Shown here piece by piece: positions 21,894 through 37,250 of a stretch of 64,000 nucleotides of DNA (its first letter is position 1; every line of letters begins with the position of its first letter). Origin of the DNA: Pseudomonas kribbensis (lineage in GTDB: Bacteria > Pseudomonadota > Gammaproteobacteria > Pseudomonadales > Pseudomonadaceae); the NCBI RefSeq assembly GCF_003352185.1, contig NZ_CP029608.1, positions 3,782,001-3,846,000 on the forward strand, in the 5' to 3' direction. Made by a program: the position numbers and the translations under genes. Below the pieces are notes generated by a model. It saw only the letters and a list, made by a program, of their open reading frames with translations, made no database searches and was not told where the DNA came from.

Positions 21894-22784
21894 TCAGCGC
21901 GATGAGTGATCGACCAGTTCCCGCAACGTATCGAGAAACAGCTTGAGCACCGGCGAGGCATCGTCCGCCCGATAGGTTGCGTACAGCGGCACCTGCGGCA
22001 GCGCCGGGGTCAGACGCCGGAACACCAGCCCGGCGGGTGCCAGTTGCTCGATGGAGGCCGGCAACAGCGCCACACCGAACCCGGCACGCACCAGACTGAG
22101 CAAGGTCTGCACCTCGATCACCTGCTGGCGGATCTGCGGGGTGAAGCCGGCCTGAATACAGCACTGATAAAGAAAATTGGCGAAGCGCGACTGCTTCAAT
22201 TCCAGTGCCACGAACGGTTCCTGCGCCAGATCTGCCGGCGCCAGCACTTCACGCCGGGCCAGCGGGTGGTCCGCCGGCATCACCACATGGATCGGTTCAT
22301 GGATCAGCAATTCATTGCGCAACTGCGGGTCGTCATAACCGACGCGGAACACGCAGGCGTCGATACGTTTTTCCTTCAACGCCTTGACCTGCGCCGCCGG
22401 GGTCATTTCATGCAGACGCCAGGTCACCTGCGGGTAACGCTCGCGAAACAGGTGCAGCGCCTTGGGCAGCACGCCGACCATCACCGAACTGATCATGCCG
22501 ATTTCCAGCTCGCCCAGTTGCCCGCGCCCGGTCTGCCGGGTCAGGTCCAGCGCCCGTTCGAGTTGTTCGAACACCAGCGGCGCCTGCTCCTTGAGCATCT
22601 GCCCCGCCGCCGTCAGCTCGACCCGGTGGTGACTGCGCTCGAACAACGGCGTGCCGAGTTCTTCCTCCAGCAAGCGGATCTGCTGACTCAGCGGCGGCTG
22701 GCAGATGTGCAGCCGTTCGGCGGCGCGGCCGAAGTGCAGCTCATCGGCCAGGGCCATGAAGTACCGCAGCAAACGCAGGTCCAT
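21894..22784 (-). CDS. LysR-family transcriptional regulator
   Basis: The 296-residue protein has an N-terminal winged HTH (about residues 1-60; RYFMALADELHFGRAAERL..QPPLSQQI) and a LysR effector domain. The type resembles BenM/CatM and other regulators of aromatic-compound catabolism. It lies six bases downstream of the molybdenum hydroxylase large subunit and is probably cotranscribed with it, so it may control this operon in response to an aromatic inducer. Confidence 0.9.
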   Translation of the reverse strand: MDLRLLRYFMALADELHFGRAAERLHICQPPLSQQIRLLEEELGTPLFERSHHRVELTAAGQMLKEQAPLVFEQLERALDLTRQTGRGQLGELEIGMISSVMVGVLPKALHLFRERYPQVTWRLHEMTPAAQVKALKEKRIDACVFRVGYDDPQLRNELLIHEPIHVVMPADHPLARREVLAPADLAQEPFVALELKQSRFANFLYQCCIQAGFTPQIRQQVIEVQTLLSLVRAGFGVALLPASIEQLAPAGLVFRRLTPALPQVPLYATYRADDASPVLKLFLDTLRELVDHSSR

Positions 22785-22790
22785 GGCGGC

Positions 22791-24998
22791 TTACCCCAGG
22801 TTCAGTGGCGTGGAACGCTGACGCACCCCGGTCAGGCTGAACAGCGCATTGGCAATCGCGGGAACCACCGACGGGCTGCCCAGCTCACCGACGCCGCCCG
22901 GTTTGTCCGGTTGGCCATCGAGCACGAGGATGTCCACCGGCGGCATGTCCGACATGCGCGTGACGCGATAGTCGTGGAAGTTGCTCTGCACGACCCTGCC
23001 CTGCTGGATGTCGAGACGATCGAACAGTGCATGACCCAAGCCCCACATCAGTCCGCCATATATCTGCTCTTCGACCCCGCCCGGCGACACCGCCAATCCG
23101 CAGTCGACCACACAGGTCAGCTTCTCGATCCGCGCCTTGCCATCGACTTTCGCAACCCGCGCCACCACGGCGATAAAACTGGTGTAGCCCTGATTGGTGG
23201 CGATCCCCAGCGCTGTATCCGGCGGCAGTTTCTGGCCCCAACCGGCGCGTTCGGCTGCCTGTTTCAACACCGCGACATGCCGTGGCCGCTCCTGCATGTT
23301 GGCCAGCCGGAACGCCAGCGGATCTTCACCGGCCGCATGGGCCAGTTCATCCATAAAGCTTTCCACGGCAAACACATTGGGAATGAAACTTACGGAGCGA
23401 TACCAGCCGCTGGGCACATGGCTTTCGTGCTTGACCCAGTTCAGCTCCAGGTGCGGCGGACGGTAGGCGAAATCCCACGCGGTGATCGCTTCGGTGGTGC
23501 TGTAATCCATGTGATCCGGGCGCTCGAAATAGCCCGGTTCCCACTGCTCCGGCGAGGCCGGCGATACTGCATGCAGTTGCAGCGCGGTTAGTTTGCCCTG
23601 GGCATCCAGCGCGCCTTTTACCCGGTGCAAGGTCGCCGGGTGATTGAACAGCGCGTGCATTTCGTCTTCGCGGCTGTTGAGCAGTTTCACCGGCACGCCG
23701 CTCTGCTGCGCCAGATACGCGACTTCAAACAACCAGTATTTGGCTTCCCGCGCACCGAAGCTGCCGCCGGACACCAGCTCATGGATGGTGACCTTGTCCT
23801 TGCCGATGCCGCACACGGTCTGCGCCGCTTCCAGCGCCGACGACGGCACCTGCACGCCGCCCCAATAGGTGATCGCCTTGTCCTTGACCTGCGCGGTGAT
23901 GCAGATCGGTTCCAGCGGGTTTTGCACCTTGTAGGGCATCGTGTAATCGGCTTCGAGCAGCTTCGCCGCACCCGGCCATTGCCCGGCGACATCGCCCTGG
24001 GCCATGGCTTTGACGGTTTGCGTTGCCGGATCGCTGATCGCTGCGACCTGTGCCTTGGGCAGCTCGGCACTGTCGAAGCTGGCCAGCGGCGAGTCGCTCC
24101 ATTTGACCTCCAGCAACTTGCGTCCCTGCTGAGCGGCCCAGAACGTTTCGGCCAACACCGCGACGCCTTCGAGGTTACCGCCGAGTACGTCCGGCCGCCC
24201 CGGAACCGCGATCACCTTGCGCACGCCCGGCACCTGCAACGCGGCTGCCGAATCCACCGCGACAACCTTGGCGCCCACTACCGGCGCACGTTGAATCACC
24301 GCCACCAGCATCCCCGGCAACTGCACGTCGATGCTGTACTTGAAACGCCCGCACACCTTGGCCGCCGCATCGCGTTTGTGGCGCAACTTGCCGATGTATT
24401 TGAACTGCGACGGATCCTTCAGCGTGACATTGGCCGGCGCCGGCAGATGCGCCGCCGCGCCGGCCAGTTCGCCGTAGCCGAGGCTGCATTTGCTCGAGGC
24501 ATGCACGACCCGGCCTTCTTCGGTGGAGCAGCTGTCGGGGCTGACTTTCCACTGCTGCGCCGCCGCGCTGATCAGCAGCGCCCGCGCCGTGGCGCCGGCC
24601 ATGCGCAGGCGATCGTATTCCAGCGACACACTGGTGCTGCCGCCGGTGGAGAAGACTTTCCAGACCGGATGAATGTAGGTTTCAAAGAACGGATCTTCCG
24701 GGGTGATGACCTGCACGGTCATCGGGTTCACATCCAGCTCCTCGGCCACACACGCGGCCAGTGCGGTCTGGGTTCCGGTGCCGGAATCATGCTTGTGCAC
24801 CACCAGTTTCACCGTGCCGTCGGGCAGCACCCGCACCCAGGCGTTGGGTTCGAATTCAGTGGCCGAGGTTTTCGGTTCAGTCGCAGCCGCACCGGATGGC
24901 AGATACAGCGCAATCGCCAGGCCGGACGCCACCGTCACCGTCTGCTTTAGAAACACCCGACGCGACAGTTCAAAACCGGCATTTTCGACGAGGCTCAT
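22791..24998 (-). CDS. Molybdopterin-binding oxidoreductase large subunit (IorB-like)
   Basis: The 735-residue protein belongs to the xanthine-oxidase/isoquinoline 1-oxidoreductase beta class. It has a Tat-type start (SRRVFLK, about residues 13-19) and a hydrophobic stretch, so export or co-export is likely. Molybdopterin-binding regions include the SGGSFGAREAKYW segment and the C-terminal GGLMWGLGHALFD. These enzymes hydroxylate N-heterocycles or oxidise aldehydes using water. The ATG at 24998 shares one base with the stop of the 2Fe-2S subunit (TGATG) and has AAGGAGG upstream. No third cytochrome c subunit is encoded here. Confidence 0.88.
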   Translation of the reverse strand: MSLVENAGFELSRRVFLKQTVTVASGLAIALYLPSGAAATEPKTSATEFEPNAWVRVLPDGTVKLVVHKHDSGTGTQTALAACVAEELDVNPMTVQVITPEDPFFETYIHPVWKVFSTGGSTSVSLEYDRLRMAGATARALLISAAAQQWKVSPDSCSTEEGRVVHASSKCSLGYGELAGAAAHLPAPANVTLKDPSQFKYIGKLRHKRDAAAKVCGRFKYSIDVQLPGMLVAVIQRAPVVGAKVVAVDSAAALQVPGVRKVIAVPGRPDVLGGNLEGVAVLAETFWAAQQGRKLLEVKWSDSPLASFDSAELPKAQVAAISDPATQTVKAMAQGDVAGQWPGAAKLLEADYTMPYKVQNPLEPICITAQVKDKAITYWGGVQVPSSALEAAQTVCGIGKDKVTIHELVSGGSFGAREAKYWLFEVAYLAQQSGVPVKLLNSREDEMHALFNHPATLHRVKGALDAQGKLTALQLHAVSPASPEQWEPGYFERPDHMDYSTTEAITAWDFAYRPPHLELNWVKHESHVPSGWYRSVSFIPNVFAVESFMDELAHAAGEDPLAFRLANMQERPRHVAVLKQAAERAGWGQKLPPDTALGIATNQGYTSFIAVVARVAKVDGKARIEKLTCVVDCGLAVSPGGVEEQIYGGLMWGLGHALFDRLDIQQGRVVQSNFHDYRVTRMSDMPPVDILVLDGQPDKPGGVGELGSPSVVPAIANALFSLTGVRQRSTPLNLG

Positions 24999-25462
24999 CA
25001 CGCCTCCTTCGGCGCATTCGCCGCACGTTTGATCGCCTTGTTGATCCGCCCGTAAGTGCCGCAGCGGCAGATATTCCCGGACATGGCGTTGCGGATCGAG
25101 TCGTCATTGACCGGCGCGCCGGTGTTAAGCAGCGCGGCGGCGGACATGATCTGCCCGGATTGACAGTAGCCGCATTGCGGCACATCTTCGGCGACCCAGG
25201 CCAGTTGCAGCGGATGGTTTTCGCTGGGCGACAGGCCCTCGATGGTGGTAATGCTGTGGCCCGCGACGGCGGCCAGCGGCAACTGGCAGGAACGCACCGC
25301 GACGCCGTTCAAGTGCACGGTGCAGGCACCGCACAGGCCCATGCCGCAGCCGAACTTGGTACCGGTGAGTTTCAACTGATCACGCAACACCCATAACAAG
25401 GGCATGGAGGGGGACGCTTCATCCAGCTCGCGTCGTTCGCCGTTAACCGTGAATGCAATCAT
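24998..25462 (-). CDS. (2Fe-2S)-binding oxidoreductase small subunit (IorA-like)
   Basis: The 154-residue protein carries the two [2Fe-2S] clusters of a molybdenum hydroxylase: [15 protein letters not shown] (C-x4-C-x2-C) in the N-terminal half, and CGYCQSGQ with [11 protein letters not shown] in the C-terminal half. It passes electrons from the molybdenum site of the next gene product. It is translationally coupled to that gene (TGATG) and is transcribed divergently from a LysR gene 118 bases away. The spacer holds an inverted repeat GGCCCG-N8-CGGGCC at 25482-25501. Confidence 0.93.
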
Positions 25463-25580
25463 TGTCAGGCTCCAAAAGAGCGGCCCGTCTTTGTGCGGGC
25501 CTGGTCATCGATTATTGGAAGCCCGGGCAACACGCGGCCAGCGACGATTTCTGCCAACCGGTGTAAGCAGGACTAACAAC

Positions 25581-26471
25581 ATGTACAAGCGATACCCGTC
25601 GGTGCAGTCCATGAGCGCGTTCATCCACGCGGCGCGCAGCGGCAGTTTTTCCAGCGCCGCGCGCAAGCTCGACCTGACCCACAGCGCGATCAGCCAGCAG
25701 ATCCGCGCGCTGGAAGAATTCATCGGCCAGCCGCTGTTCGTGCGCGAAGGCGGCGGCAGCAACCTGACCGACGCCGGGCAGTTGTTTGCCAGCGTGCTGT
25801 CGGATGGGCTGGCGCAGATTGACCGGGCGTTGTCCTCGGTGAAAAACCGCAGCGTGGCCCAGCGTCTGACGCTGGATGTAGACAGTGAACTGGCCCAGAG
25901 CTGGCTCAATCCGCGCCTGCCGCAGTTGCTCGACGGCTTGCCGGATTACGAAGTGACGATCCTGTCGATGCCGCGCAGCGATCGCAGCACGTTCGAGCGA
26001 GTGGACCTGTCGCTGCGCTATGGCTATGGCGATTGGGATGATTGCGAGATGACGCAGATCTGCGGGGATCGGGTGATGGCGGTGGCGTCTCCGGCGCTCC
26101 TTGAACGGCATGGTTTGCAGCTGCCGTTGAGCCCGGCGCAGATTCTTGAACTGCCGCTGTTGGGGTACACGCGCAGGTCGTGGATTCCGTGGCTGGATGC
26201 GGCGGGAATGCCGGCGGTGGAGCCTGCTGCTCGCGTCGTTTTTGATAACGCGGCGAATTTGATTGCGGCTGCCGAGGCTGGCGTTGGCGCCGGGCTGGTG
26301 CGTGGATTATTGGCTGCCGATGCGTTGCGCAGCGGGCGGCTGGTGGCGTTGAACGAGGCGCAGATTGCGGCGCATTACAACCTGTATGCGGTGTGGCCCC
26401 ATGGGCAGGCCGAGCGGGTGGCGCCAGTGGTTGAGGTCATCAAACAGTTGGCCATGCATACCCAACGCTGA
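25581..26471 (+). CDS. LysR-family (GcvA-type) transcriptional regulator
   Basis: The 296-residue protein has an N-terminal HTH (SFSSAARKLDLTHSAISQQI, about residues 20-39) and a GcvA-type effector-binding domain ending in a pattern such as HYNLYAVWPHG. The ATG at 25581 gives the normal LysR length; an upstream in-frame start would add 59 poorly conserved residues. It diverges from iorA and precedes the amidohydrolase-UbiD cluster on the same strand, so it is a good candidate regulator for either or both. Confidence 0.88.
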   Translation: MYKRYPSVQSMSAFIHAARSGSFSSAARKLDLTHSAISQQIRALEEFIGQPLFVREGGGSNLTDAGQLFASVLSDGLAQIDRALSSVKNRSVAQRLTLDVDSELAQSWLNPRLPQLLDGLPDYEVTILSMPRSDRSTFERVDLSLRYGYGDWDDCEMTQICGDRVMAVASPALLERHGLQLPLSPAQILELPLLGYTRRSWIPWLDAAGMPAVEPAARVVFDNAANLIAAAEAGVGAGLVRGLLAADALRSGRLVALNEAQIAAHYNLYAVWPHGQAERVAPVVEVIKQLAMHTQR

Positions 26472-26700
26472 CGCCATGGCTGGCAAGCCCATATCGAACA
26501 AGTATCACCACCCCACCCAATTAATATTGTACGAACCCTCCCCCGCCTTCCAATACTCGCCTCAAGCAACCACCCACCCGGGCCGGATGCGAACAGGCGA
26601 GGGAATGCGCGAGTGCTGCGCATAGAAACGGCCGATTGCCCGGGACGTGGATGCTGTGAGCCGCAAGGCTCCCTTCCCCGCTATCAGGAGATCGACTTCA

Positions 26701-27630
26701 ATGATCATCGATATCAGCTGCTATCCCACCGATCTGGTGGACCTCGCCTGGAGGCATGACGGTGACCCGTTCACCGGCGAGCGTCTGCTGGAGATGATGG
26801 ATGGCCCGTACATGGTCAACGGCAAGCCTCGCCGCATCGACAAAGCCTTCATCCAGCCACCGCAGGGCAACACCATTTACACCTGGACCGACGGCGAACT
26901 GTCGGGCCGCGAATCCATCGACGCCTACATGGCCTACACCCTGAAAATGGTCCAGACCTACCCGGACCGTTTCATCGGCTGCTTCGTCTACAACCCGCGC
27001 TGCGGCGTGGAAAACGGCGTCGAGGCGATCGAGCGCTACGTCAAGGAACACGGTTTCAAGATGGTGCAGATGCAGGCCAACATGCACGCCTACCGGCCTG
27101 ACCGTGCGCTGGACTGGGTGCGCCCGGCCTTCGAGAAATGCGCCGAACTGGGCATTCCGGTCAAGCTGCACACCGGCGACGGGCCTTACAGCATCCCGTC
27201 GGAATGGGTGCCGATGATCAAGGAATTCCCCAACGTCGATTTCATCATGGCCCACTTCGGCGTGCAGACCGGCGGCGTCTACGTGTTTGAACCGATGCAG
27301 TGGGCGATGGAGCTGCCCAACGTTTACTGCGAGTCCGGCTGGTGCCTGCAATCGCGGATCGTCGAGTTCGCCAAGGTGCTGCCGACCCACAAGATCCTGT
27401 TCGGCACCGACACTCCGCCGAACGAGCCGGGCATGTGGCTGCGCCTGCTCGAAGTGCTGTGCCACGAGCCGCCGCAGGGCCTGAACCTCGACGAGGACAC
27501 CCTCGAGGATTACCTGGGTAACAACACCGCACGGATGATCGGCCTTGAGCCGTCCCCGCCGCCGCGTTCCGTTTCCGAAGCAGAGGCGCAACTCAAGCGC
27601 CCCGTCACCACTCAACTGGCCAGGAGCTGA
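26701..27630 (+). CDS. Amidohydrolase-2 family protein lacking the HxH metal motif
   Basis: The 309-residue protein is a PF04909-type amidohydrolase, related to ACMSD and resorcylate decarboxylases and to some hydrolases. It closely resembles its downstream neighbour along the whole length. At the position where the neighbour has THLH it reads ISCY, so the first two metal ligands are missing. The other metal-site residues remain: His157 (LHTGDG), His185 (AHFG) and Asp237 (GTDTPPNEPG). It may use a different metal set, act as a non-catalytic partner, or be inactive. The ATG at 26701 is preceded by AGGAG. It is first in a rightward catabolic run; the next gene begins four bases after its stop. 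Confidence 0.88.
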   Translation: MIIDISCYPTDLVDLAWRHDGDPFTGERLLEMMDGPYMVNGKPRRIDKAFIQPPQGNTIYTWTDGELSGRESIDAYMAYTLKMVQTYPDRFIGCFVYNPRCGVENGVEAIERYVKEHGFKMVQMQANMHAYRPDRALDWVRPAFEKCAELGIPVKLHTGDGPYSIPSEWVPMIKEFPNVDFIMAHFGVQTGGVYVFEPMQWAMELPNVYCESGWCLQSRIVEFAKVLPTHKILFGTDTPPNEPGMWLRLLEVLCHEPPQGLNLDEDTLEDYLGNNTARMIGLEPSPPPRSVSEAEAQLKRPVTTQLARS

Positions 27631-27634
27631 ACCG

Positions 27635-28540
27635 ATGATCATCGACACCCATCTGCACCCCACCAACCTGGTCGACGAGGCCTGGCGCCACACCGGCGAA
27701 CCGTTCACCGGCGAGCGCATGCTCAAGCTGATGGACGGCCCGTACATGATCAACGGCAAACCGCGCCGGATCGACATGGGCTTCATCCAGCCGCCACCGG
27801 GCAACACCGGATATCGCGACGGCAATCGCCGTGGCCGCGAGGGCGTGCGCGACTACATGTCCTACGTCGCCGAACTGTGCGTGAAGTACCCGGACCGCTT
27901 CATCGGCAACTTCAATTTCAACCCGCGCTGGGGACCGGAAAACGGCGCGGCAGAGCTGGAATTCCACATCAAGGAATACGGCTTCAAGATGCTCAAGCTG
28001 CACGCCAACATGCACGGCTATCGCCCGGACCGGGCGCTGGACTGGCTGCGTCCGGCGATGAAAGTCTGCGCCAAGTACAACATCGTGGTGCTGATCCACA
28101 CCGGCGACGGCCCGTACACCATTCCGACGATGTTCTACCCGATCATCCGCGAGTTCCCGATGGTCAATTTCATCATCGGTCACTTCGGCATCCAGACCGG
28201 TGGCAACTACTCGTTCGAGGCGTTCTGGATGGCGATGGACACGCCGAACGTGTACTGCGAATCCGGCTGGTGCTTCCAGTCGCGGATCGTCGAGTTCGCC
28301 AAAGAGCTGCCGCGCAACAAGATCGTGTTCGGCACCGATTCGCCGCCGAACGAACCGGGCATGTGGCTGCGCGAGCTGGAAGTGTTGTGCTCGCCGGCAC
28401 CCCAGGGCCTGGGGATCGACGAGGATCACCTTGAGGATTACCTGGGCAACAACATCGCCCGGTTGTGCGGGATCGAACCGACCCCGCCGCCCAAGGATCT
28501 GGCCGAGGCGGACATTCGTCTGACCACGACCTACCTCTAA
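27635..28540 (+). CDS. Amidohydrolase-2 family protein with intact metal site
   Basis: The 301-residue protein shares the fold of the preceding gene and retains the full site: HLH at residues 6-8, His155 (IHTGDGPY), His183 (GHFG) and Asp235 (GTDSPPNEPG). Family members decarboxylate or hydrolyse aromatic and heteroaromatic acids using a divalent metal. An AGGAG within the end of the previous gene precedes the ATG at 27635, so the two are translated together, possibly as a heteromeric enzyme. Nearby UbiD, UbiX and a nucleobase permease point to a carboxylated ring compound; the true substrate is unknown. Confidence 0.9.
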   Translation: MIIDTHLHPTNLVDEAWRHTGEPFTGERMLKLMDGPYMINGKPRRIDMGFIQPPPGNTGYRDGNRRGREGVRDYMSYVAELCVKYPDRFIGNFNFNPRWGPENGAAELEFHIKEYGFKMLKLHANMHGYRPDRALDWLRPAMKVCAKYNIVVLIHTGDGPYTIPTMFYPIIREFPMVNFIIGHFGIQTGGNYSFEAFWMAMDTPNVYCESGWCFQSRIVEFAKELPRNKIVFGTDSPPNEPGMWLRELEVLCSPAPQGLGIDEDHLEDYLGNNIARLCGIEPTPPPKDLAEADIRLTTTYL

Positions 28541-28578
28541 ACCCGTACACAGCGACTTTACAGGCGCGAAGATGACCC

Positions 28579-28623
28579 GGCGTTCGCTCGACCGGCAGGC
28601 CAACGGCTTGTCGATCGAACGCC
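28579..28623 (+). other. Strong intra-operon stem-loop upstream of ubiD
   Basis: GGCGTTCG at 28579-28586 pairs with CGAACGCC at 28616-28623. An inner CGAC/GTCG stem and an AGGCC/GGCTT tip helix extend it, interrupted by a 2x2 internal loop and a four-base bulge. No T-run follows, so it is not a classical terminator. It lies in the 123-base gap before ubiD and may be an mRNA processing or stability element. Confidence 0.6.
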
Positions 28624-28663
28624 AGCCTCACCCCTGCGCGCCTGCTTTTTACGAGGTGAAACC

Positions 28664-30049
28664 ATGACCCGTTCGACGCTCGGCGACTCTCAGGATTTTC
28701 ACGTATTCATCGACGCCTATCGCCGCCAGTACCCGGACGATGTGCTGACCGTCACCCAACCCCTTTCTGCCGATCAGGACGTCACCGCCCTGGTCGATGC
28801 CCTCGCCGCCCAGGGCCGCGACCCGCTGCTGATCTGCGAACACGTCGGCAACCTCGGCGTGCCGGTGGCGACCAATCTGTTCGCCTCCCGCCGGCGTATC
28901 GCCCGGTTGTTCGGCGTCAGCGCCGCGCAGTTGCACGAAACCTTCCAGACCCGCGCCAACCAGCCGATCCCGCCACGCTACGTCGAAACCGGCCCGGTGC
29001 TCGACGAGGTGTTCGAAGGCGAAGCGCTGGACCTGGCATTGCTGCCGATGCTCAAGCATTTCGACAGTGATCGAGGCCCCTACATCACCAACGCGATCAT
29101 CATCGCCGAGGACCCGCTCACCGGCATCGCCAACATGAGCTACCACCGCTCGATGCGCCACGCCCGTCAGGCCCTGGCCACCAGCCTGCATTCACGCGGG
29201 CACCTGTGGCGGATGTTGCAGACCGCCCGCGAACGCGGCGAAGAACTGCGCGTGGCCATGGTGGTCGGCGCGCACCCGCTGTTCATGCTCGCCGCTGCTG
29301 CTCGTCTGCCTTACGGCAGCGACGAACGCGCGGTGGCCGGCGGGCTGTTCGGTGCGCCGCTGGAACTGGTGAAGACTCCGCGCTACGGCATCGGCGTGCC
29401 GGCTTACGCCGAGTTCGTGCTCGAAGGCGCGATAGACCCGGCGGCCTATGCCGAAGAAGGTCCGTTCGGCGAATTCAGCGGTTACTCCTCGGATCGCTCG
29501 ACCAACAACGTGCTGCGCGTCGACACCCTGTTACGGCGCAAGGACGCGTGGCTGGTGGACGTGATGGGCGGGCGCTACGCCGAGCATCTGACTCTGGCGC
29601 GGCTGCCCCGCGAAGCGGAAATGAGCGAGAAGCTCAAGGCGCGCTTTCCCGCCGTCACCGCCGTGCATTACCCGAATTCCGGCACGCATTTTCATTGTTA
29701 CGTGGCGCTGGACCAGAGCCGCGACGGCGAGGCCCGGCAGATCATGCTGGCCCTGCTCGGCTGGGATCCGTACCTGAAAACCGTGATCGCGGTGGACAGC
29801 GATATCGACCTCACCGACGACAGCCAGGTGCTGTGGGCACTGGCCACACACTTCCAGCCGCACCTCGACATTTTCACCATCGACGGTTTGCCCGGCAGCC
29901 CGCTGGACCCGTCGTCCTCGGTCAATGGCACCACCTCGCGCATGGGCCTGGACGCCACACGCGGCTCGGGGTTCGACGGGATCAAGGCGCAACTCGATCA
30001 GGACGTGCTCGAGCGCGCCCGGCAACTGCTCGACGGTTTGCCATCGTGA
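28664..30049 (+). CDS. UbiD-family prenylated-FMN decarboxylase
   Basis: The 461-residue protein is a UbiD-type reversible (de)carboxylase. Family motifs include NMSYHRSMRHARQALATSL near residues 155-173 and the catalytic-region stretch AYAEEGPFGEFSGYS (about residues 260-274), which supplies acidic active-site residues next to prFMN. It is too far from any ubiquinone genes to be the ubiquinone enzyme and looks like catabolic relatives acting on aromatic or heteroaromatic acids (gallate/vanillate decarboxylase type). Its last bases overlap ubiX (GTGA), so it is supplied with its cofactor enzyme in the same operon. Confidence 0.93.
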   Translation: MTRSTLGDSQDFHVFIDAYRRQYPDDVLTVTQPLSADQDVTALVDALAAQGRDPLLICEHVGNLGVPVATNLFASRRRIARLFGVSAAQLHETFQTRANQPIPPRYVETGPVLDEVFEGEALDLALLPMLKHFDSDRGPYITNAIIIAEDPLTGIANMSYHRSMRHARQALATSLHSRGHLWRMLQTARERGEELRVAMVVGAHPLFMLAAAARLPYGSDERAVAGGLFGAPLELVKTPRYGIGVPAYAEFVLEGAIDPAAYAEEGPFGEFSGYSSDRSTNNVLRVDTLLRRKDAWLVDVMGGRYAEHLTLARLPREAEMSEKLKARFPAVTAVHYPNSGTHFHCYVALDQSRDGEARQIMLALLGWDPYLKTVIAVDSDIDLTDDSQVLWALATHFQPHLDIFTIDGLPGSPLDPSSSVNGTTSRMGLDATRGSGFDGIKAQLDQDVLERARQLLDGLPS

Positions 30050-30684
30050 ACTGCCAGCGGATGGTAGTCGGCATCAGCGGCGCGTCCGGGTTCATCTACG
30101 GCGTGCGCCTGCTGCAGCTGCTGGCCGAGCTGAACATCGAAAGCCACCTGATCATCAGCCGCGCCGCGCTGCTGACCATGGCCCACGAAACCGACTACAA
30201 ACTGGCGGACGTCACCGCCCTCGCCAGCCATTACCACCGCGCCGACGACGTGGCCGCCGGGATCGCCAGCGGTTCGTTCCGTTGCCTGGGCATGGTGGTT
30301 GCGCCCTGCTCGATGCGCACCCTGGCGGAGATCGCCACCGGCACCTCATCAGGACTGATCGGCCGCGCCGCCGATGTCACCCTCAAGGAGCGCCGCACCC
30401 TGGTGTTGATGGCTCGCGAAACGCCGCTGACCCTCGCCCACCTGCGCAACATGACCGCCGTCACCGAGATGGGCGGCATCATCGCCCCGCCGGTGCCGGC
30501 CTTCTACGCCCGCCCCGACAGCCTGGCGCAAATGGTCGACCACAGCCTCGGCCGCGTCCTCGACCTGTTCGGCCTCGATGCCGGCGTCGCGCTGCGCTGG
30601 GGTGAAACGCAGGCCACCGGCCAAATCCAGCCTCACTCCCCTTCATCGTGCACCGGTCTATCACTACCAAGGAGCCTCACATGA
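30046..30684 (+). CDS. UbiX-family flavin prenyltransferase
   Basis: UbiX attaches a dimethylallyl group to FMN to make the prenylated FMN used by UbiD. The roughly 212-residue product has the family N-terminus VVGISGASGFIYGVRLL, the APCSMRTLAEIATG motif (about residues 86-99) and the RETPL segment followed by a LRNM...GGIIAPPVPAFY tail. The start is a GTG overlapping the ubiD stop, or the ATG at 30061. Its stop overlaps the cobW-type ATG (ATGA). A 25-residue tail extends beyond the usual UbiX end. Confidence 0.92.
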   Translation: MNCQRMVVGISGASGFIYGVRLLQLLAELNIESHLIISRAALLTMAHETDYKLADVTALASHYHRADDVAAGIASGSFRCLGMVVAPCSMRTLAEIATGTSSGLIGRAADVTLKERRTLVLMARETPLTLAHLRNMTAVTEMGGIIAPPVPAFYARPDSLAQMVDHSLGRVLDLFGLDAGVALRWGETQATGQIQPHSPSSCTGLSLPRSLT

Positions 30685-31727
30685 ACACCCCCTTCAACGC
30701 CCCGACCCCGAACACCAAAATCCCGGTCACCATCCTCACCGGGTTCCTCGGTGCCGGCAAAACCACCCTGCTCAATTACATCCTCAAGGAGAACCATGGC
30801 CGCAAGATCGCGGTGATCGAAAACGAGTTCGGCGAAGTCGGCATCGACGGCGATCTGGTGCTCAGCTCCGAGACCGAAGAGATCTACGAAATGGTCAACG
30901 GCTGCGTCTGCTGCACTGCCGAAATCCGCGAGGATCTGGTGCGCATCGTCCGCGAGCTGGTGGCGCGCCCGGTGCGGCTCGACCATATCCTGATCGAAAC
31001 CAGCGGCCTGGCCGACCCGTACCCGGTGGCCCAGAGTTTTTTCATCAACGACCCGATTGCCGAGGAAGTCGAACTCGACGCCATCGTGACCATGGTCGAT
31101 GCCAAACACATCGCCCAGCACCTGGAAGACCTGCAACTGGACGGCGTCGACAATCAGGCGGTGGATCAGATCGTCTGCGCCGATCGCATCGTCATCAACA
31201 AGGTCGATCTGGTCAGCGCTGAAGAAGTGGAAACGCTGCGTGGCAAGATCCGTGGCCTGAACGCCACGGCGGATCTGGTGACCTCGACCCATGCGCAGAT
31301 CGACCTGTCGAAAATCCTCGGCATCGGTGCCTTCGAATGCACGCAGAAGCTGATGGAAATCGGCGCCGAACACGACCATCACGCCGACGAGCATCACCAC
31401 GACCATGACGAGCCGGATCACGAACACGACCCGAGCGTGTCCTCGGTGGGCATCGCCGTGGACGGCGCCGTCAACCTGATGGCGTTCCACCGCTGGATCA
31501 GCGAGTTGCGCAGTGCTCAGGCCGACAACCTGTACCGCATGAAAGGTGTGCTGGCGGTGGCCAACGAAGACCAGCGCTACGTGCTGCAAGGCGTGCACAG
31601 TCTGGTGGAGTTCCGCGCCTCTACCGCGTGGGGCAGCGAGCCGCGCTCGAGCAAGATCGTGTTCATCGGCCGCGACCTGGATCGGGCGGCGCTGAACCAG
31701 GGCTTCGCCGCCTGCCTGGCCGGCTGA
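30681..31727 (+). CDS. CobW/COG0523-family metal-chaperone GTPase
   Basis: The 348-residue G3E GTPase has the Walker A motif GFLGAGKTT at residues 21-29, the metal-binding CVCC motif at 75-78 (CxCC type), an NKVD guanine-specificity motif at about 173-176, and a histidine/aspartate-rich metal loop at 231-250. A CobW C-terminal domain follows. These proteins deliver zinc or other metals to client enzymes. AAGGAG precedes the ATG at 30681, which overlaps the ubiX stop. Coupling with metal-dependent amidohydrolases and the aminohydrolase suggests that it loads metal into one of them. Confidence 0.92.
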   Translation: MNTPFNAPTPNTKIPVTILTGFLGAGKTTLLNYILKENHGRKIAVIENEFGEVGIDGDLVLSSETEEIYEMVNGCVCCTAEIREDLVRIVRELVARPVRLDHILIETSGLADPYPVAQSFFINDPIAEEVELDAIVTMVDAKHIAQHLEDLQLDGVDNQAVDQIVCADRIVINKVDLVSAEEVETLRGKIRGLNATADLVTSTHAQIDLSKILGIGAFECTQKLMEIGAEHDHHADEHHHDHDEPDHEHDPSVSSVGIAVDGAVNLMAFHRWISELRSAQADNLYRMKGVLAVANEDQRYVLQGVHSLVEFRASTAWGSEPRSSKIVFIGRDLDRAALNQGFAACLAG

Positions 31728-31818
31728 AACCCGGCATCGGAGCCGGTGGATGGCGGTTCCGGGCACACAGAACGAATACCCCTCTGTACCGAATAACAAC
31801 AGCTAGAGGTGATTCCCC

Positions 31819-33174
31819 ATGTCGTCAGCCAGTTCCTCCTCCACCGTCCACCCCGTCGACCGCGTCTTGCCGGTGCGACAGATGCTCACCCTCGGCCTGC
31901 AGCACATGGCCGTCTCGTACATCGGCGCCATCGCCGTGCCGTTGATTGTCGCCAGTGCCTTGAAGATGTCCCACGCCGACACGGTGGTGCTGATCAGCAC
32001 CACGCTGTTCTGCTCGGGTATCGCCACCCTGCTGCAGACCGTCGGTTTCTGGAAGTTCGGCGTGCGCCTGCCGATTCTGCAAGGCGTGGCGTTCAGCAGC
32101 GTCGGGCCGGTGATCGCCATCGGCAGCAACCCGGAGGTGGGTTTCGCCGGGGTCTGCGGGGCGGTGATCGGCGCGGGGATTTTCACCCTGCTGATGGCGC
32201 CGTTCGTGGGCCGCTTGCGACGATTCTTTCCGCCGGTGGTGACCGGTTGCATCGTCACGGTGATCGGTCTGCAGCTGTTCCCGATTGCCTATGAGTGGGT
32301 CGGCGGCGGGCGCAACGCGAGCAATTTCGGCGCCCCGGCGTTTCTTGCCGTGGCGGTGCTGGTGCTGCTGACCATCCTGCTGGTCAACCGCTATGGCAGC
32401 CCGTTGCTGCGCAACATGGCGGTGCTGGTCGGCATGCTGGTGGGCGCCGGTCTGGCTTACGCTCTGGGCATGGGCAATTTTCACAGCGTCGAGGACGCGC
32501 CGTGGCTGACCGTGCCCTACCCGTTCTATTTCGGTTTGCCGACCTTCAGCCTGATCCCCATCGCGACCATGGTGGTGGTGATGATCGTGCAGATGGTCGA
32601 GTCCATGGGCCTGTTCGTGGCCATCGGCGACATCGTCGACAAACCGGTCGACGACAAGCAGGTGATCAACGGCCTGCGCGCCAATGGCCTGGCCAGCACC
32701 ATCGCCGGGATGTTCGCCGCGTTCCCGTTCATAGCCTTCATGGAGAACGTCGGGCTGGTGATCCTGACCGGCGTGCGTAGCCGTTGGGTGGTGGCGATCA
32801 GCGGCCTGCTGATGTGTTCGATTGCGCTGGTACCGAAGGCCGGGGCGATCATCGCCTCGATGCCGACCGCGGCACTGGGCGGTGCCGGCATCGCCATGTT
32901 CGGCGTGGTCGCCGCGGCGGGCATCCAGACCCTGGCCAAGGTCGACTACGAGCGCAACCGCTACAACGTGCTGATCGTCGGTTTCACCATCGCCGCCGCC
33001 CTGGTGCCGGTGCTCGCCCCGACCCTGTTCAAACAATTGCCCGAGTGGTCACAGCCGTTCCTGCACAGCAGCGTGGTCATCGCCTGCCTGGTGTCGGTGC
33101 TGCTCAACGCGGCGCTCAACGGCGTCAGCGTGCCAGAAACCACACCCGGCAAATCCGCCTCGCACATCCTTTGA
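31819..33174 (+). CDS. NCS2-family nucleobase:cation symporter (xanthine/uracil-type permease)
   Basis: The 451-residue protein with about 14 membrane segments belongs to the NAT/NCS2 transporters. The signature region reads ENVGLVILTGVRSR (about residues 309-322), with a Gly where uracil-type transporters often have Arg, nearer to the purine/urate type. It therefore probably imports a purine-like or other N-heterocyclic base with protons. GAGGTG precedes the ATG at 31819. Its place between cobW and the aminohydrolase gene makes it the likely uptake system for the substrate of this cluster. Confidence 0.92.
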   Translation: MSSASSSSTVHPVDRVLPVRQMLTLGLQHMAVSYIGAIAVPLIVASALKMSHADTVVLISTTLFCSGIATLLQTVGFWKFGVRLPILQGVAFSSVGPVIAIGSNPEVGFAGVCGAVIGAGIFTLLMAPFVGRLRRFFPPVVTGCIVTVIGLQLFPIAYEWVGGGRNASNFGAPAFLAVAVLVLLTILLVNRYGSPLLRNMAVLVGMLVGAGLAYALGMGNFHSVEDAPWLTVPYPFYFGLPTFSLIPIATMVVVMIVQMVESMGLFVAIGDIVDKPVDDKQVINGLRANGLASTIAGMFAAFPFIAFMENVGLVILTGVRSRWVVAISGLLMCSIALVPKAGAIIASMPTAALGGAGIAMFGVVAAAGIQTLAKVDYERNRYNVLIVGFTIAAALVPVLAPTLFKQLPEWSQPFLHSSVVIACLVSVLLNAALNGVSVPETTPGKSASHIL

Positions 33175-33186
33175 CTGGAGCTGCCC

Positions 33187-34575
33187 ATGACTCGACTTCA
33201 AAACATCCTGATCAAAAATCCCGTAGCGGTGATGACCGGCCTGCGCGGCCCCCGGGCCCGGGCCGGTGCCGTGGACATCCGCGTGGTCAACGGCCGCATC
33301 GCCGAAATGGCCGCCAACCTTGAGCCGCAGCCCGGTGAACGAGTGATCGACGCCCGTAACTCGGTGGTCTATCCGGGCTGGATCAACACCCACCACCACC
33401 TGTTCCAGAACCTGCTCAAAGCCGTGCCCGAAGGCTTGAATCAGGATCTGCAAGGCTGGCTGGCGAGCGTGCCCTATCCGCGCCTGAACCGCTTTACCCC
33501 GCAACTGGCGCGGATCGCCGCACGCTTGGGGATGGTCGAGCTGCTGCTGTCAGGCGTCACCACTTGCGCCGATCACCACTACCTCTACCACGCCCACGGC
33601 AGCACCGAGACCGGTGACTTGCTGTTCGACCTTGCCGAGGAATTCGGTCTGCGTTTCGTGCTGTGCCGTGGCGGCGCGCTGGAGTCGGCGAGCGCGCACC
33701 CGGGCTTCTCGAAAACCGCGCTGCAACCGGAATCCCTGGAGCAAATGGTCGGCGATCTCGAACGGCTGAAATCCCGCTATCACCAGGACACCCCAGATGC
33801 CCTGCGCCGTGTGGTCGTGGCGCCAACCACGCCGACCTTCTCGCTGCCGCCGACGCTGCTGCGCGAACTGGCGCACACCGCCCGAGGCATGGGACTGCGT
33901 CTGCACACGCACCTGTCGGAAACCGAGAATTACGTGAACTTCTGCCGCGACAAGTACAACTGCCTGCCGGTGGAGTTCGTCGCCGAACACGAATGGCTCG
34001 GCCCGGACGTGTGGTTCGCCCACGCCGTTCATCTGCAACCGGGGGAAATCCGCATGCTCGCCCAGACCGGCACCGGCGTCTCCCACTGCCCGGTGAGCAA
34101 CGCCCGGCTGGGCAGCGGCGTCGCGCCGATCCCGCAGATGTACGAGGCCGGTGTGCCAATCTCCCTCGGTGTCGACGGCGTGGCCTCCAACGAATCCGGA
34201 AGCATGGTCGGCGAAGCCAACACTGCGTGGCTGATCCACCGCGCCGAACAAGGCGCCTCGGCCACCACCGCCGAAGACGTCATCCACTGGGGCACGGCCG
34301 GCGGCGCGCAAGTACTTGGCCTCGGCGCGGTCGGTACACTGGAAATCGGCCAGGCAGCGGATCTGGTGATCTACAGCCTCGACCATCCACGCTTCTACGG
34401 CTTCCACGACAGCGCCGTCGCACCGGTCGTCGCGGGTGAGCCGATTGCCGTGAAATACAGCCTGGTGGGCGGGAGGATCGTGGTCGATGACGGCGTGATT
34501 CCGGGGCTGGATATCGAGCGGATGCGGGCCGAGGCTTGGGATGGAGTGCAGGCGATGATGAAGGTCGACGATTGA
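33187..34575 (+). CDS. Amidohydrolase/aminohydrolase, 8-oxoguanine deaminase-like (AtzB/TrzN family)
   Basis: The 462-residue metal-dependent aminohydrolase has HxH within INTHHHLFQ (about residues 67-75), the family segment LLSGVTTCADHHYL, a metal His in LHTHLSET, AHAVHL, and the Asp of GVDGVASNESGSM. The framework resembles 8-oxoguanine deaminase and s-triazine hydrolases. The likely reaction is deamination of a purine- or triazine-like ring. GGAG precedes the ATG at 33187, 12 bases after the permease stop. The substrate cannot be fixed from sequence; other N-heterocycles are possible. Confidence 0.88.
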   Translation: MTRLQNILIKNPVAVMTGLRGPRARAGAVDIRVVNGRIAEMAANLEPQPGERVIDARNSVVYPGWINTHHHLFQNLLKAVPEGLNQDLQGWLASVPYPRLNRFTPQLARIAARLGMVELLLSGVTTCADHHYLYHAHGSTETGDLLFDLAEEFGLRFVLCRGGALESASAHPGFSKTALQPESLEQMVGDLERLKSRYHQDTPDALRRVVVAPTTPTFSLPPTLLRELAHTARGMGLRLHTHLSETENYVNFCRDKYNCLPVEFVAEHEWLGPDVWFAHAVHLQPGEIRMLAQTGTGVSHCPVSNARLGSGVAPIPQMYEAGVPISLGVDGVASNESGSMVGEANTAWLIHRAEQGASATTAEDVIHWGTAGGAQVLGLGAVGTLEIGQAADLVIYSLDHPRFYGFHDSAVAPVVAGEPIAVKYSLVGGRIVVDDGVIPGLDIERMRAEAWDGVQAMMKVDD

Positions 34576-34940: not shown

Positions 34941-35870
34941 TCACCCGCCCGGGTTCACGCTCAGACCCAGTTTCAATAGCTCTTTGCGCAGGATCGAGGG
35001 CTTCAGAATCGCCAACCCAGCCTGCCACTCAATCGGCAGTAAACGACTCAACTTCTGCTGGCTGACCATGTGTTCAGCCAGCAAACAACTTGTGCGCTGG
35101 CTGATGCTGATGACGTTCAACAACCAGTCGTCCCCCTGCCCGCCCATCCAGCGGCAAATCTCGCTGCGATGCTTCTCGATCAATGCATCGGCGTCCCACA
35201 CGGTCATCTGCGCAAAAACCTCGGGCAACCGGCTCTCGGGTTTCATGCGTTTGAGATCGGCGGCCAATGCAGCAGACATGTCTGATTCGATGGCCGCCTG
35301 ACATTCGAGGAAGTACTGCTCGGGCCAGTCCGCCGTAAGTTTCCCGTGTGGTGCGAGTTCGGCATAGGCCTCGATGTCCGCCGCCGTGGTCATTTGCCCG
35401 GTGAAATTCAGCGTGTTGTCCAGAATCGCCGTGGCCAGCAGCGCGGCGCTTTGCTCGCTGATCCTCGGCAGCAAACCTGCGGTTTTCCAGCGCTGGAAAA
35501 CCTGGGTCGCCGCCGCGCCGATCGGGCGGATGTCGGCGGCAGATCCGAGCGTCTGCGCCCAGTGGTTTTCGAAACCCGGATGATGGTCGATGACTTCCAC
35601 CACCCGGTCGAGGGCGACCATCGGGTCGAAGTGGTGGTAATCGGAGACATCGACCAGCACGAACTCGTCGTTGGATGTCGGGCGGTAATCGTTCAGAACG
35701 GCGCCCCAGCCGAGCACGGTGTTCGAAACACTGGCATTGGGTTTTGCGTTACTGACGGCGCGGGCGGGAATGCCTTGCAGGTTGAGCAGTTCGGCGTAGG
35801 CGATGCAGCAGGCCCAGGCGTCGATGTCCAGATATGCCGAGCCTGAGGTGATGACTTTGATGGGCGACAT
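34941..35870 (-). CDS. DHH-family phosphoesterase
   Basis: The 309-residue protein has the DHH-superfamily metal motifs: YLDIDAWA (Asp15, Asp17), LVDVSDYHHFD (Asp74, Asp77 region) and the signature IDHHP at residues 94-98. It resembles manganese-dependent inorganic pyrophosphatase (PpaC) and nanoRNase-type proteins, without the clear C-terminal DHHA2 signature. It is probably a cytoplasmic Mn-dependent phosphatase or phosphodiesterase. It does not seem functionally linked to the nucleobase genes on either side; cotranscription with the leftward hyuC-type operon cannot be excluded. Confidence 0.85.
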   Translation of the reverse strand: MSPIKVITSGSAYLDIDAWACCIAYAELLNLQGIPARAVSNAKPNASVSNTVLGWGAVLNDYRPTSNDEFVLVDVSDYHHFDPMVALDRVVEVIDHHPGFENHWAQTLGSAADIRPIGAAATQVFQRWKTAGLLPRISEQSAALLATAILDNTLNFTGQMTTAADIEAYAELAPHGKLTADWPEQYFLECQAAIESDMSAALAADLKRMKPESRLPEVFAQMTVWDADALIEKHRSEICRWMGGQGDDWLLNVISISQRTSCLLAEHMVSQQKLSRLLPIEWQAGLAILKPSILRKELLKLGLSVNPGG

Positions 35871-35936
35871 TGCGCGTCCCTGGCTTCCATTTCAGGGGCG
35901 GCAACGTCGCACATTTTCATGAACGATTAATGAACA

Positions 35937-37220: not shown

Positions 37221-37250
37221 GGGGATCTCCTCAGGCAGTTCTTATGGGAA

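What the first reader, a model, noticed from the sequence alone, without database searches (positions are those of the whole stretch)
22791..34575. Candidate undescribed N-heterocycle carboxylate catabolic cluster
One region holds a molybdenum hydroxylase (IorAB-like), two amidohydrolase-2 proteins, UbiD with its own UbiX, a metal-chaperone GTPase, an NCS2 nucleobase permease and an 8-oxoguanine-deaminase-like enzyme, flanked by LysR regulators. I know no named pathway with this combination. Uptake by NCS2, ring hydroxylation, decarboxylation by UbiD or the amidohydrolase, then deamination would degrade a carboxylated purine-, pteridine- or pyrimidine-like compound. The order of steps is inference.
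Basis: partly seen in the sequence, partly recalled or inferred. Interest (0 to 1): 0.72.

Follow-up and report, generated by a model that had tools for sequence, protein, structure and literature searches.

The report
Candidate pterin-degrading gene cluster
A block of co-inherited genes in a Pseudomonas and some other bacteria looks like a route that turns pterins (the ring of folates and insect pigments) into xanthine, and it offers gene candidates for a step that I recall as known only from 1960s biochemistry.

Summary
They form one inherited unit: AH1-AH2-UbiD are contiguous in 79 of 80 loci fetched, and close homologues of AH1, the IorB-like hydroxylase and the deaminase occur in the same 20 of 199 genus genomes.

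The '8-oxoguanine-deaminase-like' gene scores below that family's cut-off, while another gene of the genome passes it. Its nearest solved relative is 2paj, recalled as an isoxanthopterin deaminase, so a pterin substrate is likely.

Best reading (inference): a Tat-exported molybdenum hydroxylase oxidises a pterin; NCS2 imports it; the deaminase makes a lumazine; the AH1/AH2 pair, of which AH1 has lost the HxH motif, contracts the ring to xanthine-8-carboxylate; UbiD decarboxylates it to xanthine for the genome's xanthine dehydrogenase. The ring contraction (EC 5.5.1.3) is recalled as an activity without a gene. No reaction was tested. Against it: the hydroxylase is missing near AH1 in one Pseudomonas and several other loci, and 2paj is closer to a different deaminase group. 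Library searches found no description of the cluster.

The parts
21894..22784 (-). LysR1, probable regulator of the AH1 unit
   Evidence: PF03466/PF00126. Beside AH1 in Crenobacter, Pandoraea, Paracoccus, Brucella and Ochrobactrum loci that lack IorAB nearby
22791..25001 (-). IorB-like molybdenum hydroxylase large subunit with a twin-arginine (Tat-like) signal
   Evidence: PF02738/PF20256; RR motif (loosened pattern) in 52 of 57 homologues over 500 bits; in the other 5 the matched DNA does not reach the N-terminus
24998..25462 (-). IorA-like [2Fe-2S] small subunit
   Evidence: PF01799, PF00111; overlaps IorB by 4 bases
25581..26471 (+). LysR2, mostly travels with IorAB
   Evidence: PF03466/PF00126. 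Absent together with IorAB in Pandoraea, Paracoccus and Brucella loci; exception Crenobacter, which keeps it
26701..27630 (+). AH1: amidohydrolase-2 protein without HxH (S-C-Y), probable partner subunit
   Evidence: PF04909; degenerate motif in 111 of the 185 homologues listed; separate clade from AH2, support 0.999
27635..28540 (+). AH2: amidohydrolase-2 protein with HxH, probable catalytic subunit
   Evidence: PF04909; HxH in 70 of the same 185; ACMSD-family fold. ATG at 27635 seen; other calls used 27632 as first base
28664..30049 (+). UbiD-family prFMN decarboxylase, nearest solved relative PtHmfF (6h6v)
   Evidence: TIGR00148; R162, E265, E270 and H308 in 89 of 89 loci scored
30046..30684 (+). 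UbiX flavin prenyltransferase (GTG start 30046, or ATG 30061)
   Evidence: TIGR00421 233.2 bits against 108.9; overlaps the UbiD stop
30681..31727 (+). CobW/G3E-type GTPase, probable metal chaperone
   Evidence: PF02492/PF07683; ATGA overlap with UbiX; present in 36 of 36 loci tabulated by name
31819..33174 (+). NCS2 permease, xanthine-permease subfamily
   Evidence: TIGR03173 476.4 bits against 414.15
33187..34575 (+). cog0402-type deaminase, candidate isoxanthopterin/leucopterin deaminase
   Evidence: PRK12393; 2paj 453 bits against 298 for the next, 3hpa; Q74, Y132, T214, T215

Best explanation
This is a pterin-catabolic island that feeds purine breakdown. Shown here by sequence: the gene families, their linkage and co-inheritance, the deaminase's kinship to 2paj, the UbiD catalytic residues, and the pair of amidohydrolases of which one keeps and one has lost HxH. 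Inferred: (1) IorAB, exported by Tat, hydroxylates C6 or C7 of a pterin in the periplasm (for instance isoxanthopterin to leucopterin). (2) NCS2 imports it. (3) The deaminase removes the 2-amino group; from leucopterin this gives tetraoxypteridine (2,4,6,7-tetrahydroxypteridine). (4) AH1/AH2, metallated with help from the CobW-type GTPase, hydrolyses one amide bond of the oxamide-like 6,7-dioxo ring and recloses the oxamic acid on the neighbouring amine, giving xanthine-8-carboxylate (EC 5.5.1.3, tetrahydroxypteridine cycloisomerase; recalled as an activity of Alcaligenes faecalis without a gene, McNutt and Damle 1964). (5) UbiD with UbiX-made prFMN decarboxylates C8 to give xanthine. (6) Xanthine enters the genome's xanthine dehydrogenase pathway. 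I give about 0.7 to a pterin-class substrate and 0.45 to the whole scheme.
For: Deaminase: best PDB match 2paj 453 bits, next 3hpa 298; below the 8-oxoguanine deaminase cut-off while another gene of the genome passes at 699.7 bits; signature Q-Y-T-T in 56 of 56 loci at 70% identity or more (one, L119, is the window's own gene), against Q-Y-C-S in the genome's 8-oxoguanine deaminase. A review passage says that Sargasso Sea members of this family deaminate isoxanthopterin and pterin-6-carboxylate (PMC5270733). Different gene sets around the same core: Comamonas-type loci use a three-subunit XDH-like hydroxylase and a 46-50% deaminase; Sinorhizobium meliloti plasmids have an XDH-like hydroxylase, a CodA-like deaminase and a BMP-type ABC transporter. 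These keep AH1-AH2-UbiD. UbiD is nearest PtHmfF, acting on a five-membered heteroaromatic 2-carboxylate, and keeps a His at the place of His296 of that chain, probably the furan-specificity residue that PMC7976604 calls H297; imidazole C2 forms a covalent prFMN adduct in HudA. The own genome holds XdhB over the cut-off. Step 4 is ordinary amidohydrolase plus cyclisation chemistry (inference).
Against: No reaction was tested and the McNutt pathway is recalled; the library search for it found one unrelated paper. 2paj is closer to a different deaminase group, linked to a Rieske oxygenase (677 bits), than to this one (453), so substrate transfer is indirect. HudA did not accept imidazole-2-carboxylate, and I know of no UbiD enzyme acting on an azole C2. 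Many of AH2's fold neighbours are decarboxylases, so AH1/AH2 could be the decarboxylase. The hydroxylase is not always there: L041, a Pseudomonas, has 10 kb upstream of AH1 without IorAB or the LysR genes, and a Mo-hydroxylase large subunit is missing from the stretch held in 8 of 36 loci tabulated by name (L066, L076, L088, L094, L095, L097, L098, L114; L097 is short and L098 shows an XDH FAD subunit). Whether those genomes have one elsewhere was not tested. L089 and L100 show no full deaminase. Genomes G716 and G808 carry AH1 without a close deaminase, G812 with a partial one; G808's locus has none in the 20 kb held.
Confidence: 0.45

Rival explanations
1. Pterin-6-carboxylate route: the compound taken up is a folate breakdown product (pterin-6-carboxylate). 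It is deaminated and 7-hydroxylated, UbiD removes the 6-carboxylate, and AH1/AH2 then opens the pyrazine ring of the resulting 7-hydroxylumazine.
For: Pterin-6-carboxylate is the other reported substrate of these enzymes (PMC5270733 passage); lumazine-6-carboxylate is named as a candidate folate-degradation intermediate (PMC9513972 passage); UbiD and UbiX need a carboxylate somewhere.
Against: It leaves the product of AH1/AH2 without a route known to me. Hydroxylase and deaminase vary while AH1-AH2-UbiD stay contiguous, which fits AH1/AH2 and UbiD as consecutive steps in either order, so it does not exclude this rival.
Confidence: 0.2
2. Purine route: the cluster degrades an oxidised or carboxylated purine (8-oxoguanine-like) and the deaminase is a purine deaminase.
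For: NCS2 falls in the xanthine-permease subfamily; homology of the deaminase to 3hpa, 298 bits, recalled as an 8-oxoguanine deaminase.
Against: A separate gene passes the 8-oxoguanine deaminase cut-off and the cluster gene does not; the signature residues differ, T-T against C-S; purine breakdown as I know it needs no UbiD and no amidohydrolase-2 pair.
Confidence: 0.12
3. AH1/AH2 is itself a non-oxidative decarboxylase (isoorotate- or LigW-like) and the cluster handles a carboxylated pyrimidine or a dicarboxylate; UbiD acts on a second carboxylate.
Against: A shared fold gives no function; LigJ hydratase is equally near and LigY is in the list; two decarboxylases would need a dicarboxylic start; the deaminase evidence points to pterins.
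Confidence: 0.12
4. AH1/AH2 is a dinuclear metal monooxygenase like AibH1H2, also a heteromer of two amidohydrolase-2 proteins.
For: AibH1H2 is a precedent for a catalytic plus an auxiliary amidohydrolase subunit (PMC7782822 passages); 8ful AibH1H2 is at rank 49 of the fold matches of AH1; AH2 has an acid at D+5.
Against: AH2 has HxH where AibH2 has Asp-x-His, and Pro where AibH2 has His340 (D+3); I recognised no ferredoxin-reductase gene among the eleven genes.
Confidence: 0.05

Closest known systems
Isoxanthopterin deaminase Sgx9339a (PDB 2paj; Hall 2010, not held; the link of 2paj to this name is recalled)
   Same: Nearest solved relative of the cluster deaminase; Q, Y, T, T pattern
   Different: 2paj is closer to the Rieske-linked deaminases (677 bits); no pathway or neighbours described in what I could read
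Pterin deaminase and carboxypeptidase G of Variovorax sp. F1, and Arad3529 (PMC9513972)
   Same: Bacterial pterin/folate deamination by a hydrolase of cyclic amidines
   Different: A term search of its main text found no UbiD, amidohydrolase, xanthine or decarboxyl; in the parts I read it does not carry the pterin ring further
HmfF furandicarboxylate decarboxylase (6h6v) and its prenyltransferase HmfG (HmfG recalled)
   Same: Nearest solved UbiD (212 bits); His in the EHL motif conserved
   Different: Substrate is a furan; neighbours here are a pterin-type deaminase and NCS2
AibH1H2 (PMC7782822, PMC10401708, PMC12141560; passages)
   Same: Heteromer of one catalytic and one auxiliary amidohydrolase-2 subunit
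   Different: Metal ligands differ; AH1 has lost HxH altogether, whereas AibH1 still binds one metal
Tetrahydroxypteridine cycloisomerase, EC 5.5.1.3 (recalled)
   Same: Would be the reaction of AH1/AH2
   Different: No sequence known to me, so no comparison possible

Membership tests
2paj-type isoxanthopterin/pterin-6-carboxylate deaminase | 2paj is the nearest solved relative | tested here: met
   453 bits against 298 for 3hpa
2paj-type isoxanthopterin/pterin-6-carboxylate deaminase | conserved Gln, Tyr and two Thr in the active site (recalled from Hall 2010; positions assigned by me) | tested here: met
   Q74 Y132 T214 T215; 56 of 56 loci at 70% or more; among AH1-linked loci at 46-50%, 7 T-T and 4 T-S
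2paj-type isoxanthopterin/pterin-6-carboxylate deaminase | same orthologous group as 2paj | tested here: inconclusive
   Rieske-linked deaminase scores 677 with 2paj, Oxalobacteraceae cluster type 553, window 453
2paj-type isoxanthopterin/pterin-6-carboxylate deaminase | activity on isoxanthopterin | not testable with these tools
   needs an assay
8-oxoguanine deaminase (PRK08203) | score over the curated cut-off of 532 bits | tested here: not met
   425.9; another gene of the genome reaches 699.7
UbiD decarboxylase | family score and the E-R-E network | tested here: met
   TIGR00148 282.6 against 244.85; R162, E265, E270 in 89 of 89 loci scored
HmfF-like UbiD | His equivalent to HmfF H297 | tested here: inconclusive
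   H308 aligns with His296 of chain 6h6v and is in 89 of 89 loci; that this is the H297 of PMC7976604 is my inference, the numbers differ by one
UbiX flavin prenyltransferase | TIGR00421 cut-off | tested here: met
   233.2 against 108.9
NCS2 xanthine permease subfamily | TIGR03173 cut-off | tested here: met
   476.4 against 414.15; transported compound not tested
ACMSD-type amidohydrolase-2 | HxH, His, Asp metal site (set recalled) in AH2 | tested here: met
ACMSD-type amidohydrolase-2 | HxH metal site in AH1 | tested here: not met
   S-C-Y in the window and in 96 of 185 listed homologues; related degenerate forms in 15 more
AibH1H2-type dinuclear monooxygenase | Asp-x-His at strand 1 and D-x2-H-x-D | tested here: not met
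   AH2 has H-x-H and D-x2-P-x-E; ligands of AibH2 from passages
Tetrahydroxypteridine cycloisomerase (EC 5.5.1.3) | converts tetraoxypteridine to xanthine-8-carboxylate | not testable with these tools
   activity recalled; no sequence to compare

The most novel reading that the evidence does not exclude
AH1/AH2 is the missing tetrahydroxypteridine cycloisomerase: a heteromer of one HxH-bearing and one HxH-less amidohydrolase subunit that hydrolyses and recloses a pteridine to a purine-8-carboxylate. The UbiD beside it would be the first prFMN decarboxylase acting at an azole C2 (xanthine C8). Together they form a pterin-to-purine salvage route spread over several proteobacterial lineages, with interchangeable oxidation, deamination and uptake modules.
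Probability: 0.3. Interest if true: 0.78.

Novelty: new variant of a known kind. Interest (0 to 1): 0.62.

Why it matters
If true, it gives genes to a pterin catabolic route and to an activity that, as I recall, has lacked a gene for about 60 years; links folate and pigment pterins in the environment to purine nitrogen; adds a new UbiD substrate class; and gives another example of a catalytic/auxiliary amidohydrolase pair. The steps can be tested with purified proteins and single deletions.

Tried and rejected
Rejected: 8-oxoguanine deaminase identity. AibH-type oxygenase identity for AH1/AH2. Unlinked or chance neighbourhood. Phage carriage of AH1: no match at E 1e-20 in 50,697 phage records. 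Led nowhere: the papers on 2paj and Arad3529 are not held; one unrelated library paper for EC 5.5.1.3 and its product; nothing on bacterial isoxanthopterin or leucopterin breakdown that named this cluster in the listings (20 of 75 and 2 of 2 papers listed); no paper for the gene combination and no fitting one among 5. P. aeruginosa NCS2 substrates (PMC11633122): no 'pterin' in the main text. NC_003078 carries no gene table in the collection. An actinobacterial AH2 (P0139) gave no actinobacterial plasmid, so I could not see whether AH2 stands alone in Actinobacteria and Chloroflexota, where homologues exist. A first regex for the AH motif was wrong and was redone; a first motif search for the deaminase mis-hit in several rows and was replaced by an alignment count; a first Tat count, 25 of 52, was too strict and misplaced and was redone with a looser pattern and a higher score limit.

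Limits of the counts: one search found 301 confirmed stretches and returned the best 80. Searches list the best 120 of 291 and 120 of 298 homologues; the 185 distinct proteins come from these lists. One search gave 35 of 199 genomes at E 0.001; 20 of them have AH1, the other 15 only distant amidohydrolases at 27-32%. One search gave 30 of 199; 20 at 90% or more, 10 at 52-55%. One search gave 73 of 299; the 12 beyond the 61 are G812 (partial), G716 and ten without AH1. E-value limits were set by me. In one search the loci L075, L077, L080, L083, L084 and L085 (short) were left out of the table, and loci of 20 kb or less were left out of the Pseudomonas count, which hid L041; one search recounted all 42 Pseudomonas loci. 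The 89 and 72 loci include the window's own genome. The tree dropped proteins outside 280-344 residues or without a readable motif. The Fisher test ignores shared descent and is not used. Co-inheritance in one locus can reflect transfer of a block.

Full report
WHAT IS THERE. The window lies in a 6.32-Mb single-contig genome; the nearest named loci are Pseudomonas (P. paraglycinae, P. koreensis, P. sputi and others). On the plus strand run AH1 (26701-27630), AH2 (27635-28540), UbiD (28664-30049), UbiX (30046-30684), a CobW-type GTPase (30681-31727), an NCS2 permease (31819-33174) and a deaminase (33187-34575), with 4-base gaps or overlaps at several junctions. On the minus strand lie an IorAB-like molybdenum hydroxylase (22791-25462) and LysR1 (21894-22784); LysR2 (25581-26471, plus) sits between the two units.

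IT IS ONE UNIT. A scan of one genome for each of 84,980 species with an AH1 alignment found 301 stretches encoding a relative; the best 80 were returned. AH1-AH2-UbiD are contiguous and in one direction in 79 of these 80; in the other (L084) the DNA held ends just past AH1. Of 42 Pseudomonas loci, 36 hold all eleven window genes; in L023, L024, L037, L042 and L044 the held DNA ends inside the block; L041 (P. baetica) has AH1 to deaminase but no IorAB and no LysR gene in the 10 kb held upstream. In the genus sample, AH1, an IorB homologue at 82% or more and a deaminase at 90% or more are in the same 20 of 199 genomes; one search has 15 further genomes with distant amidohydrolases only, and one search has 10 with a 52-55% deaminase. 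In a sample of 299 genomes of the family of G449 (inferred to be Burkholderiaceae), 64 have AH1; 61 of them have the deaminase at 66% or more, G812 has a partial copy, G716 only a 52% homologue and G808 none; 0 of the 235 genomes without AH1 have one at 66% or more, ten have one at 48-55%. In a phylum-wide sample AH1 is rare: 4 of 398. These are linked genes, so the counts show co-inheritance, not independent events.

THE CORE AND ITS INTERCHANGEABLE MODULES. Around AH1-AH2-UbiD the other roles are filled by different proteins. Most Pseudomonas loci and the Marinobacterium, most Ralstonia, Paraburkholderia and Caballeronia loci have IorAB and a 70-100% deaminase. Comamonas, Ramlibacter, Rubrivivax and Xylophilus have a three-subunit XDH-like hydroxylase and a 46-50% deaminase, some with a BMP-type ABC transporter. 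Massilia and Pseudoduganella combine an IorB at about 60% with the 48-49% deaminase. Sinorhizobium meliloti plasmids and Ponticoccus have an XDH-like hydroxylase and a CodA-like deaminase that is 64-78% identical across five alphaproteobacterial loci. One search tabulated 37 loci by name; one (L129) was not yet in the database and was scored. Of the other 36, the GTPase is in 36; UbiX is missing from L073 and L089; a Mo-hydroxylase large subunit is missing from L066, L076, L088, L094, L095, L097, L098 and L114 (L097 is a short stretch; L098 shows an XDH FAD subunit); a deaminase is missing or partial in L071 (stretch ends), L089 and L100. LysR1 stays beside AH1 in those loci without IorAB; LysR2 mostly goes with IorAB (exception L066).

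THE DEAMINASE POINTS TO PTERINS. It matches PRK12393 (779.9 bits against 543) and falls below the 8-oxoguanine deaminase cut-off (425.9 against 532). The genome has another gene at 699.7 bits for that family. Its nearest solved relative is 2paj (453 bits; next 3hpa 298); the Comamonas-type deaminase gives 490 against 220 and the Oxalobacteraceae one 553 against 232. I recall 2paj as Sgx9339a, an isoxanthopterin and pterin-6-carboxylate deaminase (Hall 2010, not held); a review passage says that Sargasso Sea members of this family have these activities (PMC5270733), and another review cites the paper (PMC11121863 passages). The residues I recall as its pterin contacts are Gln, Tyr, Thr, Thr. 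In one search, 72 loci were scored: Q-Y-T-T in 56 of 56 at 70% or more (one being the window's own gene, L119), 7 Q-Y-T-T and 4 Q-Y-T-S in the AH1-linked 46-50% group, 1 Q-Y-T-T and 3 Q-Y-T-S in a Rieske-linked group, and Q-Y-C-S in the genome's own 8-oxoguanine deaminase. Against this, 2paj itself is nearest the Rieske-linked group (677 bits).

UBID. Nearest solved relative 6h6v, 212 bits, next distinct enzyme (AnInD) 144; 6h6v is PtHmfF (PMC8988006 passage). The catalytic Arg and two Glu, and a His that aligns with His296 of 6h6v, are present in 89 of 89 loci scored. PMC7976604 passages state that H297 was key to furan specificity in HmfF (I take this to be the same residue; the numbers differ by one), that imidazole C2 can bond covalently to prFMN in HudA, and that imidazole-2-carboxylate is not a HudA substrate. 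So azole-C2 chemistry on prFMN has a structural precedent and no catalytic one that I know.

THE AMIDOHYDROLASE PAIR. AH1 and AH2 are 64% identical yet split cleanly into two clades, 109 and 69 proteins, support 0.999. Of 185 homologues listed have HxH, 111 have a degenerate form (SCY 96, ACH 9, SAY 2, SCF 2, ACY 2) and 4 have no readable motif. Both models are confident (AH1 mean pLDDT 84.4, AH2 88.1) and match ACMSD-family decarboxylases and LigJ-type hydratases, which says little about the reaction. AibH1H2 is a precedent for a catalytic plus an auxiliary amidohydrolase subunit (passages of PMC7782822, PMC10401708 and PMC12141560), but its metal ligands are not conserved in AH2. That AH1 and AH2 bind each other is inference.

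HOW IT MOST LIKELY WORKS. The UbiD/UbiX pair needs an aromatic or unsaturated carboxylate, while the other genes suggest a pterin that need not carry one. The one route I know from pteridines to a heteroaromatic carboxylate is the ring contraction of tetraoxypteridine to xanthine-8-carboxylate described for Alcaligenes faecalis (McNutt and Damle 1964, EC 5.5.1.3; recalled, no library support). Chemically this is hydrolysis of one amide bond of the 6,7-dioxo ring followed by closure on the neighbouring amine, fitting for an amidohydrolase. The order would be: periplasmic oxidation by IorAB (Tat-like RR motif in 52 of 57 IorB homologues; in the other five the matched DNA does not reach the N-terminus), uptake by NCS2, deamination, ring contraction by AH1/AH2, decarboxylation by UbiD, and xanthine dehydrogenase, whose XdhB the genome has over cut-off (1297.4 against 849.5). 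Every arrow is inference. The main rival keeps the pterin but starts from pterin-6-carboxylate. The missing hydroxylase in some loci means that step 1 is the least certain part.

NOVELTY. Searches of the open-access library for isoxanthopterin deaminase, EC 5.5.1.3 and its product, pterin deaminase or UbiD, bacterial isoxanthopterin or leucopterin breakdown, Arad3529/2PAJ, and this gene combination showed no description of the cluster in the listings I saw (one search listed 20 of 641 papers, 20 of 75). The nearest paper is on folate degradation in Variovorax (PMC9513972: abstract, passages and section 8 read). Subscription papers and preprints are not covered. All parts belong to known superfamilies, so I class it as a new variant of a known kind (catabolic cluster), with a reaction it could give genes to.

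Noticed in passing
L122:6636-10873, L123, L124, L125 (window's genus); L132, L133 (family of G449): A second conserved block without AH1 or UbiD in the 19 kb held: a VanA-like Rieske oxygenase, a Tau-type ABC permease (with an NMT1-type binding protein in L124) and a deaminase that in L122 is even closer to 2paj (677 bits). Possibly another pterin-degrading system using a Rieske oxygenase.
   Followed up: partly
window 34941-38735 (-): Next to the cluster lie a DHH-like protein (label from reading, no family match), an M20 hydantoinase/carbamoylase-type amidase (PRK09290.1-3, 680.8 bits against 452) and an NCS1 permease; amidase and permease lie downstream of the deaminase in part of the Pseudomonas loci and may belong to pyrimidine or hydantoin use.
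   Followed up: partly
P0137, P0139, P0148 (Nocardia, Streptomyces, Humibacter) and P0153 (Caldilineales): AH2-type proteins with intact HxH, 69-74% identical, occur in Actinobacteria and Chloroflexota; whether they have an AH1 partner is unknown.
   Followed up: no
P0074, P0077, P0078, P0081, P0083, P0084, P0087-P0089: An AH1 subgroup from metagenome sources reads A-C-H and has Ser or Thr where the others have the Asp at strand 8, so it has lost still more of the metal site.
   Followed up: no
L041:1-10000: P. baetica 25P2F9 has the AH1-to-deaminase unit but other genes in place of IorAB and the LysR pair, so the hydroxylase half was lost or moved there.
   Followed up: partly
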